A stretch of 41,151 nucleotides of DNA from Protofrankia sp. CiP1_Cm_nod1. GTDB taxonomy: Bacteria; Actinomycetota; Actinomycetes; Frankiales; Frankiaceae. Under the pieces are notes generated by a model that saw only the letters and a program-made list of their open reading frames with translations, was not told the DNA's origin and did no database searches. Below, one piece after another: positions 25,963-27,668 of the stretch (position 1 is its first letter; every line of letters starts with the position of its first letter). The stretch is taken from contig NZ_CAKKTM010000035.1 in assembly GCF_920888515.1 (NCBI RefSeq), positions 1 through 41,151 of the forward strand. Direction: 5' to 3'. The position numbers and the translations under genes were made by a program.

Positions 25963-26763
25963 GTGGCGCACATCGTTCAGGGCTTCCAGTATCGGCCGGT
26001 CCGCAACACCGCTGGCGACACGATCCATCCGGTCGGCCTCGTGCTGCACGTCGCACAGGGCAACGGCTCCCAGTTCGGCTGGTTCAACGATCCGCAATCG
26101 CAGGCATCGTCGAACTTATGGGTGGGCAAGGCCGGGCAGCGTGAGCAGTACGTGCCCTCGGACGTCCGGGCGTGGGCGCAGGCGGCGGGAAACAGCACAT
26201 ACGACTCGATCGAGACCGAGGGTTTCGACACCGAGGCGCTGACCCCGGAGCAGATCGAGAGCGTGGCCGTGGCTTACGCCGACGGTGTGCGTGCTTTTGG
26301 CTGGGCGCTGGCCGTGACGGACACGCCCGGCCAGTCCGGATTGATTACTCATAGCGCAGGAAGGGCGGCCTGGGGCAATCATCCGGGTTGCCCGGGTGGT
26401 ATCCGCACCGGCCAGCGTCATCAGATCATTGCGAGGGCCGCGCAGATCGCGGGAGGCCCGACGTCGCCTGTGCAGCCCAAAGTGGTGGCTCTGCAGCATG
26501 CGGTGCACGTGGTCGCGGACGGGACCTGGGGCCCGGTCACCGACGCGGCGCTCGCCGAGGTCCGGGCCAACCGGCATACCAGGGCCCAGCAGGCCGCGGT
26601 CGGTGCGGCCGTCGACGGCGCCTGGGGCCCCCTGTCGCAGGCGGCATATGTCGTGACGGTACGGACGATCCAGTCCATCCTCGGAGTGGGGGTGGACGGG
26701 GTCTGGGGGCCGGTCACCGACCAGGCTTTCGTTGCCGTCCGCAACGATCATTTCACCGGCTGA
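25963..26763 (+). CDS. N-acetylmuramoyl-L-alanine amidase (PGRP/T7-lysozyme fold) with peptidoglycan-binding-like repeats
   Basis: A 266-aa cell-wall hydrolase that should cut the MurNAc-L-Ala bond. Zinc ligands are likely His29 (LVLHVAQG), His130 (GLITHSAGR) and Cys143 (HPGCPGG), with acid residues in ETEGFD. After residue 155 there are three DGxWGPxT/S elements (DGTWGPVTD, DGAWGPLSQ, DGVWGPVTD) resembling peptidoglycan-binding repeats. No signal peptide is visible, as in phage endolysins. GTG 25963 is used; no ribosome binding site precedes it, but a promoter is placed for leaderless translation. It overlaps the convergent gene at 26748 by 16 nt. It could be a phage remnant or a host remodelling/defence enzyme. 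Confidence 0.87.
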   Translation: MAHIVQGFQYRPVRNTAGDTIHPVGLVLHVAQGNGSQFGWFNDPQSQASSNLWVGKAGQREQYVPSDVRAWAQAAGNSTYDSIETEGFDTEALTPEQIESVAVAYADGVRAFGWALAVTDTPGQSGLITHSAGRAAWGNHPGCPGGIRTGQRHQIIARAAQIAGGPTSPVQPKVVALQHAVHVVADGTWGPVTDAALAEVRANRHTRAQQAAVGAAVDGAWGPLSQAAYVVTVRTIQSILGVGVDGVWGPVTDQAFVAVRNDHFTG

Positions 26764-27221
26764 TCCCATTCGGCTACGAGAGCGTCCCAGGTACGGTAAC
26801 GAGCCACCGGATAAGCGGTGGACACGACCCCGTTGGGGTCGACAACGGCCACCGGATATCCAAGCTGTGCCCGGTACCCGCGTTCGCTGACGACAATGCG
26901 GCCGCCGAGGCGGGCCGCGCCGACGACGATCGGCCGCGACGTCCACCTCGGGGTGGCCGCCGCGGCAAGTTCGTGTGCCGACAGCCATGCGTACAACCCG
27001 CAGACACAGTCCTCGCCCGGCATCCGCGGATGCGGTGTCAAGGGCGACTGAGACATCTGGCCGCCGAGGTCGTCCCGCGCACCGCGCAGGCAGAACGCCT
27101 TGGTGAGGCCGTCGGGGCGCCACAACAACAGGCCGGCCGGGAACGGTGACCACGGCGTCCATGCCGGGCGTAACCGGCCAGCGCCGTCCACCGCCCACTG
27201 GCGCCAGCCGATGACGCTCAC
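26748..27221 (-). CDS. Conserved hypothetical protein with CxCGLYAW motif
   Basis: A 157-aa protein of unknown function. It contains GEDCVCGLYAWLSAHEL in the middle, preceded by a Cys (FCLRGA), and later VVGAARLGGRIVVSERGYRA and GYPVAVV. I recall short actinobacterial proteins with a Cys-x-Cys-GLYA core followed by a G-x-I-x-V-x-x-x-G-[FY]-RA segment, so it is probably a real family. The clustered cysteines could bind zinc, but a four-residue site is not clear. GTG 27221 overlaps the stop of the 45-aa upstream gene (GTGA), implying co-translation. It is convergent with the amidase, with a 16-nt overlap. Confidence 0.7.
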   Translation of the reverse strand: MSVIGWRQWAVDGAGRLRPAWTPWSPFPAGLLLWRPDGLTKAFCLRGARDDLGGQMSQSPLTPHPRMPGEDCVCGLYAWLSAHELAAAATPRWTSRPIVVGAARLGGRIVVSERGYRAQLGYPVAVVDPNGVVSTAYPVARYRTWDALVAEWDQPVK

Positions 27222-27355
27222 CTGCCTGCCGGCACGGGTTCGGTTTCGACCGGTTCAGCCGGTTCGGCCGGTTCGGGCAGGGCCAGCGGCTCCTGCTCCG
27301 GCCAGGAGATCGGTTCGTCCTCGACGATCCGCAGCGGCTCACCTACATTTGACAT
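27218..27355 (-). CDS. 45-aa acidic, Pro/Glu-rich small protein coupled to the CxCGLYAW gene
   Basis: A short open frame starting with ATG at 27355 (MSNVGEPLRIVEDEPISWPE) and ending in Pro-Glu-Pro-Ala-Glu-Pro repeats before a TGA that overlaps the next gene's GTG by 4 nt. It has about 12 Glu/Asp against 2 Arg, so it is strongly acidic and probably unstructured. A purine-rich GAGGGAA lies upstream, with somewhat long spacing. The coupling and regular third-position GC support translation. Function unknown: it might be a partner, inhibitor or tail of the downstream protein, but nothing in the sequence decides this. Confidence 0.55.
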   Translation of the reverse strand: MSNVGEPLRIVEDEPISWPEQEPLALPEPAEPAEPVETEPVPAGR

Positions 27356-27425
27356 ACATCAACGTTCCCTCGCCCCGCCGCGCCGGTCAATATCCCTGCC
27401 GTCATCCCGGCCGTCCGCGCCGGTC

Positions 27426-27668
27426 TCAACGCAGGCGCAGGATCTGTAGGCCGTGGTCGGCCAGGAGGGCTGGCAGGTGACGGATGGTCGCGATGGCCCT
27501 GGCGCGCTGGTCGTCCGGGAGATCCGGCCAGTCGACGAGCAGGTTGTGCTGTCTGCGGCCGTCGTCGCGGCCCGGGGCGAACGTCCAGCCCTGGCCGCGC
27601 CGTTGCGCGCACCGGCGGCTCCAGCACAGCCGGTTGCCTGAGGACCCGCACCACGCCCGCCGCCGGGT
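27426..27668 (-). pseudogene. RyR-domain-like fragment lacking a normal start codon
   Basis: An 80-codon open stretch between two stops. Its last 55 residues read GWTFAPGRDDGRRQHNLLVD, then WPDLPDDQRARAIATIRHLP, ALLADHGLQILRLR and stop. This fits the RyR-type repeat pattern (G-W-x-[YF]-x-P-x-RD...H..L..W..LP......A....P..L...G..I). Third positions are almost all G/C, as in real genes here. There is no ATG, GTG or TTG in the frame; only a CTG (27629) could start it, in mid-domain. An in-frame TGA at 27669-27671 separates it from an upstream open stretch. It is probably a decayed or frameshifted gene, or less likely a CTG-initiated small protein. Confidence 0.5.

What the first reader, a model, noticed from the sequence alone, without database searches (positions are those of the whole stretch)
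26748..27355. Undescribed two-gene unit: 45-aa acidic peptide coupled to a CxCGLYAW protein, convergent with an amidase
The acidic Pro/Glu-rich peptide and the Cys-motif protein overlap by 4 nt and face a peptidoglycan amidase with a 16-nt tail overlap. Small acidic partner plus unknown protein beside a lytic enzyme could be an immunity/regulator arrangement or a phage remnant. The genes are seen; the function is speculation.
Basis: partly seen in the sequence, partly recalled or inferred. Interest (0 to 1): 0.5.

Follow-up and report, generated by a model that had tools for sequence, protein, structure and literature searches.

The report
Microprotein paired with zinc-type domain protein
A 45-residue acidic protein and its overlapping neighbour gene form a real, undescribed two-gene unit that is conserved nearly throughout the Frankia family of root-nodule bacteria and recurs in distant actinobacteria and some Streptomyces viruses, where the tiny protein is predicted to fit onto the larger one; what the pair does is not yet known.

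Summary
In detail: both frames, the 4-nt GTGA overlap and the 16-nt tail overlap with the amidase are as described. The pair is more than chance. The 157-aa protein is in 33 of 35 genomes of the order; the 45-aa frame precedes it in 20 of 20 loci first read. In 31 distinct copies, 13 of 26 core codons keep their residue while third bases vary, and TTGAC lies 35-37 nt before the start codon in 29 of 30 upstream regions. The amidase is no partner: it adjoins the pair in 5 of 5 Protofrankia regions and 0 of 16 others. The Cys protein belongs to a wide undescribed actinobacterial family with relatives in five Streptomyces phages. A similar small peptide adjoins it in 5 of 5 phages and in 30 to 40 of 76 remote bacterial loci. 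AlphaFold2 on one natural pair, read through its stop codon, docks the peptide's core as a beta strand (pLDDT 90). Best reading: a dedicated microprotein completing the sheet of a Cys/His, probably zinc, domain. The role is unknown; weak structural hints point to an ADP-ribosyltransferase-like fold without a conserved catalytic Glu.

The parts
27218..27355 (-). 45-aa acidic Pro/Glu-rich microprotein gene (ATG start)
   Evidence: conserved partner frame; 13 of 26 core codons vary only synonymously in 31 copies
27308..27331 (-). core RIVEDEPI of the microprotein (residues 9-16)
   Evidence: R to P invariant in 31 of 31 distinct copies, the last I in 30 of 31
26748..27221 (-). 157-aa CxCGLYAW protein gene (GTG start)
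27218..27221 (-). GTGA stop/start overlap of the two genes
   Evidence: 18 of 20 first loci; 21 of 36 remote upstream pairs overlap by 1 or 4 nt
26985..27008 (-). CVCGLYAW motif (residues 72-79): C72 and C74 of the proposed metal site
   Evidence: C72 in 65 of 68 (His in 2), C74 in 68 of 68 remote members
27090..27092 (-). C44 codon, third conserved cysteine of the proposed site
   Evidence: 67 of 68
27195..27209 (-). GWRQW (residues 5-9), in the first strand of the domain, with R7 and W9
   Evidence: R 65 of 68, W 64 of 68; strand 3-11
27385..27390 (-). TTGACC box of the proposed promoter, 35 nt before the ATG
   Evidence: TTGAC at -37 to -35 in 29 of 30 distinct Frankiaceae upstream regions, 0.2% expected
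27362..27367 (-). GAACGT, weak -10-like hexamer ending 6 nt before the ATG; would fit a leaderless mRNA
   Evidence: by eye; one search does not score a sigma-70 site here

Best explanation
The two genes are one translationally coupled operon that makes a two-protein complex. The 157-aa product is a small beta-rich domain with three near-invariant cysteines plus, usually, a histidine, probably holding zinc. The 45-aa product is its dedicated partner: the conserved N-terminal core (IG-x8-EP; in Frankiaceae VGxPxRIVEDEPI) binds as an extra beta strand, while the Pro/Glu-rich tail stays flexible and may reach a further target. The complex most likely acts as a constitutive binding or adaptor module in the cell. 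Shown here: the genes, their conservation, the overlap, the recurrence of the pair, and the conserved residues. Predicted only: strand docking, by AlphaFold2 on a relative. Inferred: translational coupling, zinc, complex formation in the cell, leaderless transcription and the adaptor role.
For: Orthologues in 33 of 35 genomes of the order, small frame in 20 of 20 first loci, 31 distinct copies with an invariant core. TTGAC box at -37 to -35 in 29 of 30. A weight matrix built from Frankiaceae peptides alone picks, as its top block in 5 of 5 phage loci (two of them identical here), the frame overlapping the phage homologue; it also finds an adjacent peptide in 30 of 76 remote bacterial loci above the best of 76 opposite-strand control windows. 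A leave-cluster-out matrix gives 44 of 76 at a threshold passed by 3 of 152 control windows; 40 of 76 exceed every control window. Of those 40, 36 lie upstream: 33 of 36 have a start codon within 20 nt and 21 overlap by 1 or 4 nt. Window protein model: pLDDT 88.6. Natural pair of L201 read through its stop: residues 1-10 pLDDT 90, strand 6-12, then 70, 69, 71, 63 and 47 per block of ten; the next strand starts at 65, in the large protein, so strand 6-12 must pair with the large protein. C44, C72 and C74 in 67, 65 and 68 of 68 remote members, C72 replaced by His in 2.
Against: No experiment. The docking model is of a relative, with the peptide tethered by a read-through stop and only five concatenated rows of 35; I saw confidence and secondary structure, not coordinates. 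The order of the two genes is reversed in the phages and in L047, L050, L214, L227. 36 of 76 (strict) to 46 of 76 remote loci show no recognised peptide, and 8 of 36 remote peptides are neutral or basic. The His of the proposed metal site is in only 42 of 68, and in the window it stands one residue further from the Pro. No recurrent neighbour was seen around 11 remote copies, so the pathway is unknown.
Confidence: 0.6

Rival explanations
1. Toxin-antitoxin or immunity pair: the 157-aa protein is a toxin with an ADP-ribosyltransferase-like fold and the small acidic peptide neutralises it by filling a strand position.
For: Small acidic gene, 1-4 nt overlap and two-gene layout; presence in phages; four of the five chains with Z 2 or more against the docked model are ADP-ribosyltransferases or, for Tne2 (recalled), of that fold, several of them toxins (Z 2.7-3.9).
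Against: Mostly single-copy, stable neighbourhood and 33 of 35 in the order, unlike mobile pairs; no conserved Asp or Glu in 68 remote members; no useful hit in Pfam, NCBIfam or PADLOC; the Z values are within noise, and the window protein's own model gave no such neighbour (one chain with Z 2 or more, 2aua_B, Z 4.9).
Confidence: 0.17
2. The small frame is a leader peptide: its translation only opens the start of the large gene, and the peptide itself has no job.
For: 4-nt overlap and a promoter-like box close to the start of the small gene.
Against: The amino-acid core is invariant while synonymous sites change, it recurs in phages and distant bacteria, and it can lie downstream of the large gene.
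Confidence: 0.07
3. Active NAD-dependent or other enzyme whose active site is completed by the peptide.
For: Near-invariant R7 and R117 and the CxCG motif; ART-like neighbours of the docked model; the GxRxW strand resembles the Arg strand of such enzymes (recalled).
Against: No conserved acidic residue; folds matched only at Z 3.9 or less; Foldseek against PDB gave nothing with E of 0.001 or less.
Confidence: 0.1
4. Regulator or immunity unit of the neighbouring amidase, or a prophage remnant.
For: Tail overlap of 16 nt with the amidase; the amidase resembles endolysins (phrog_1493, E 1e-12).
Against: Amidase cluster in 5 of 5 Protofrankia and 0 of 16 other regions; no relative found in phages or viral contigs by searches with the Frankiaceae protein itself.
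Confidence: 0.03

Closest known systems
Hypothetical proteins of Streptomyces phages BRock, LuckySocke, Alone3, GiJojo and pSt2308
   Same: Homologous CxCG(I/V)YA domain (three of them aligned; BRock structural match E 4.2e-5), overlapping by 1-4 nt with a small (D/N)IG-x8-EP peptide gene
   Different: Peptide gene lies downstream; the large protein is about 80 aa longer; function also unknown
DUF7666 (PF24703) domains of phages and giant viruses
   Same: Weak fold resemblance in BFVD (E 0.14-0.77, TM 0.29-0.41 by query)
   Different: No Pfam match to this model in the members scanned; none found in 198 genomes of the phylum, but without a positive control
ADP-ribosyltransferase fold (Scabin 6vvf, 5zj4, Tne2 6b12, pierisin-1 5h6k)
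   Same: Neighbours of the docked pair model, Z 3.9, 3.6, 2.9, 2.7
   Different: Z within noise, not seen with the window protein's own model, no conserved catalytic Glu, extra Cys/His site
Type II toxin-antitoxin operons
   Same: Small acidic gene overlapping a larger one
   Different: Near-universal and in a stable neighbourhood in Frankiaceae; no family or DNA-binding domain detected in the peptide; toxicity untested

Membership tests
ADP-ribosyltransferase superfamily | ART fold | tested here: inconclusive
   four such chains, Z 2.7-3.9, for the docked model; only 2aua_B (Z 4.9) for the window model; no Foldseek hit with E of 0.001 or less
ADP-ribosyltransferase superfamily | Conserved catalytic Glu | tested here: not met
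   no Asp or Glu column reaches 60% of 68 remote members
ADP-ribosyltransferase superfamily | Enzyme activity on NAD+ | not testable with these tools
   needs assay
DUF7666 (PF24703) | Profile match over the curated cut-off | tested here: not met
   Pfam scans of the window protein and relatives gave no DUF7666 at E up to 1
DUF7666 (PF24703) | Shared fold | tested here: inconclusive
   E 0.14-0.77, TM 0.29-0.41
Type II toxin-antitoxin system | Small gene overlapping a larger gene in one operon | tested here: met
   (overlap shown; co-transcription inferred)
Type II toxin-antitoxin system | Toxicity relieved by the partner | not testable with these tools
   needs expression test in a laboratory strain
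Type II toxin-antitoxin system | Patchy, mobile distribution | tested here: inconclusive
   Not patchy in the order: 33 of 35 genomes, stable neighbourhood in 15 of 16 non-Protofrankia regions. Patchy outside: 45 of 395 other genomes of the phylum draw
Lytic-enzyme immunity or lysis cassette | Conserved linkage to a lytic enzyme | tested here: not met
   5 of 5 Protofrankia, 0 of 16 other regions
Zinc-binding domain | Four conserved Cys/His ligands | tested here: inconclusive
   three Cys in 65-68 of 68, fourth (His) in 42 of 68; metal not testable

The most novel reading that the evidence does not exclude
A widespread, undescribed actinobacterial and actinophage system in which a domain of about 120 residues with a Cys/His site is made without one of its strands, and a separate microprotein of roughly 30-60 residues, encoded next door in either order, supplies that strand and a flexible Pro-rich arm: a split, peptide-completed domain, possibly derived from the ADP-ribosyltransferase fold, that phages have also taken up.
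Probability: 0.4. Interest if true: 0.75.

Novelty: new variant of a known kind. Interest (0 to 1): 0.6.

Why it matters
A near-universal gene pair of a family of nitrogen-fixing symbionts has no family model in the libraries searched and no known function, and its microprotein is short enough to be missed by gene callers. Knowing the pair lets annotators look for the small gene next to members of the large family, gives a concrete complex to express and solve, and links a conserved bacterial gene to genes of Streptomyces phages, where a deletion phenotype could be read quickly.

Tried and rejected
Amidase partnership and prophage remnant: rejected by neighbourhoods and by phage and viral searches with the Frankiaceae protein. 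Chance open frame: rejected by codon variation and upstream conservation. Second copy of the peptide in the own genome: two candidates besides the gene itself had E under 1 (0.015 and 0.35); the first lies antisense in what looks by eye like a sugar ABC transporter operon, the second was not read. Known families: Pfam, PHROGs, NCBIfam, PADLOC and PDB sequence searches gave nothing of use. Plasmids: no match with one remote member. DUF7666: no genome hit, but no positive control either. Recurrent neighbours of remote copies: none seen by eye in 11 loci. Absence from the VIA lists excludes no fold. Literature: the listings showed no title or opening of abstract on the pair; only listings were seen (at most 15 per search, of an open-licence library), so absence from print is not claimed.

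Weak points of the counts: the 76 remote loci are not independent (several per genome, and close relatives among them). Dropped before the counts: the three phage loci L177-L179, L183 (same place as L134), and L186, L187 and L239 (domain score under 17). One search scored at most 9 candidates a genome, so 45 of 395 is a lower bound. In one search three of the 44 positives (L053, L221, L225) are pieces of the large protein's own C-terminus and L189 is doubtful; all four fall below the best control window, and the other 40 are above it. The 40-versus-30 range reflects two matrices, with Frankiaceae plus phage seeds, gave 28 of 76. The 36 pairs are the upstream ones of these 40, chosen by me. One PADLOC query (L189:5000-5500) was not checked for frame and is not used.

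Full report
What is there. On the minus strand a 45-aa ATG frame (27218-27355) overlaps by GTGA a 157-aa GTG frame (26748-27221), which meets the amidase 25963-26763 tail to tail with 16 nt shared. The amidase carries Amidase_2 (E 1.7e-11) and resembles endolysins.

The pair is a near-universal Frankiaceae feature. The 157-aa protein matches 33 of 35 genomes of the order; the two misses are genomes of about 3 Mb, G006 (63% complete) and G010 (94%). G010 has a distant version with its own small peptide (L131). The small peptide's profile matches 26 of 27 family genomes of the class draw and 1 of 269 others, weakly and inside a long frame. A motif scan of 84,980 species gave 35 stretches, 22 of them confirmed relatives, all in Frankiaceae records.

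It behaves as protein-coding sequence under selection. In 31 distinct copies, 13 of 26 core codons keep the same residue in 31 of 31 while their third bases vary. Upstream, TTGAC stands 35-37 nt before the start codon in 29 of 30 distinct regions, against 0.2% expected, with two further TTGAC in all the stretches from -130 to -41; the exception, L016, has it at -53, 18 nt further because of an upstream in-frame ATG. By eye an ACCGT-like block ends about 6 nt before the start. That spacing would fit a leaderless transcript; leaderless genes are the subject of PMC3160421 and are treated in PMC8079986 (search listing only), and that they are frequent in actinobacteria is recalled. The consensus scanner calls no sigma-70 site here, so the promoter reading is an inference.

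The amidase is a bystander. In 21 family regions, the amidase cluster has five members, all Protofrankia (5 of 5; 0 of 16 elsewhere). In 15 of the 16 other regions the pair lies near an LLM-type oxidoreductase on one side and a membrane protein on the other (clusters 4 and 3, named by eye), in 6 regions with a further gene cluster (13) present as well; the sixteenth, a 12-kb contig (G007), shows neither.

The large protein belongs to a wide unnamed family. A profile finds distant relatives in 45 of 395 other genomes of the phylum draw, a lower bound, and in 38 of 296 of the class draw, 26 of them Frankiaceae with clear orthologues and one (G010) with a distant copy. In 68 remote members scoring above 35 bits (65 bacterial loci, 3 phages), R7, W9, W34, C44, P68, C72, C74, G75, G107 and R117 of the window protein are kept in 64-68; no acidic residue reaches 60%. 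C72 is replaced by His twice, and a His three columns before the invariant Pro is present in 42 of 68, which suggests a metal site; in the window the His (H64) stands four before it. No library names the family.

The partner peptide recurs. Streptomyces phages BRock, LuckySocke, Alone3, GiJojo and pSt2308 encode the domain, and the next gene, overlapping by 1-4 nt, encodes a small peptide beginning M(D/N)IG and carrying VQ(A/S)EP at the same spacing as VEDEP of Frankiaceae. BRock is described as virulent, with no lysogeny genes predicted (abstract of PMC7453282). With a matrix from Frankiaceae peptides alone, this frame is the top block among 434-1199 candidates in each of 5 phage loci (LuckySocke and Alone3 are identical here), and 30 of 76 remote bacterial loci have an adjacent block above the best of 76 control windows. 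With related clusters left out in turn, 44 of 76 pass a threshold that 3 of 152 control windows pass, and 40 exceed all control windows. In the 36 upstream pairs among these 40 the peptides average 45 residues and 24% Pro; 28 of 36 are acidic, two neutral, six basic, four of these strongly; 21 overlap the large gene by 1 or 4 nt and 33 have a start codon within 20 nt. In the other four of the 40 and in the phages the peptide gene is downstream. In 36 of 76 (46 of 76 by the stricter) no such peptide was recognised.

How it may work. AlphaFold2 gives the window protein a confident beta-rich fold (pLDDT 88.6) without a convincing PDB relative (2aua_B, a protein of unknown function, Z 4.9); phage proteins are the best matches in BFVD (E 4.2e-7 and 4.2e-5). 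For the natural pair of L201, where one TGA separates the two genes in frame, the read-through model (245 aa, 35 rows, five concatenated) places the peptide's first ten residues at pLDDT 90 with a strand at 6-12, followed by an arm of falling confidence (70, 69, 71, 63, 47 per ten residues) and the domain. The next strand begins at residue 65, inside the large protein (Trp 54 stands for the stop), so the peptide strand must pair with the large protein. Of 447 chains compared with this model, five score Z 2 or more; four of these are ADP-ribosyltransferases or (Tne2, recalled) of that fold, at most Z 3.9: a lead, not a membership, and not reproduced with the window protein's own model.

Verdict. 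A real, conserved, undescribed microprotein-partner module. Complex formation by strand addition is the most likely mechanism; the cellular role is open.

Noticed in passing
window 27429-27668 (-): An 80-aa open stretch matches the C-terminal end of a gene whose open frame is 606-724 aa just upstream of the pair in G001-G003 (TrkA-N/RyR-like by eye, recalled); in the window only this stretch was found, beside the divergent M48 peptidase gene.
   Followed up: partly
L181 (G004:C31), minus strand: A congener carries a second, distant copy of the pair with its own overlapping 40-aa peptide.
   Followed up: partly
L050, L219, L228, L231: A related small frame with (V/I)VEPL(V/E)EPTPERR lies downstream of the large gene instead of upstream; it passed the matrix threshold only in L050.
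   Followed up: partly
L052, L216, L232, L233: In this group the partner peptide is strongly basic (net charge +8 to +10) instead of acidic.
   Followed up: no
L188, L189 (genomes G583, G220): A more divergent branch with CDCGFH in place of CxCGxYA has short frames ending EEVPAAR upstream, perhaps the same arrangement.
   Followed up: no
Streptomyces phages LuckySocke gene 7 and Alone3 gene 8: The peptide gene is annotated as a ribbon-helix-helix protein in Alone3, while in LuckySocke that name is on the following gene; the Alone3 label looks shifted by one.
   Followed up: no
L031, L033, L037, L039, L201 and relatives: One group of the large family carries an extra CxxC and CxxH pair after the domain, a possible second metal site (seen).
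   Followed up: no
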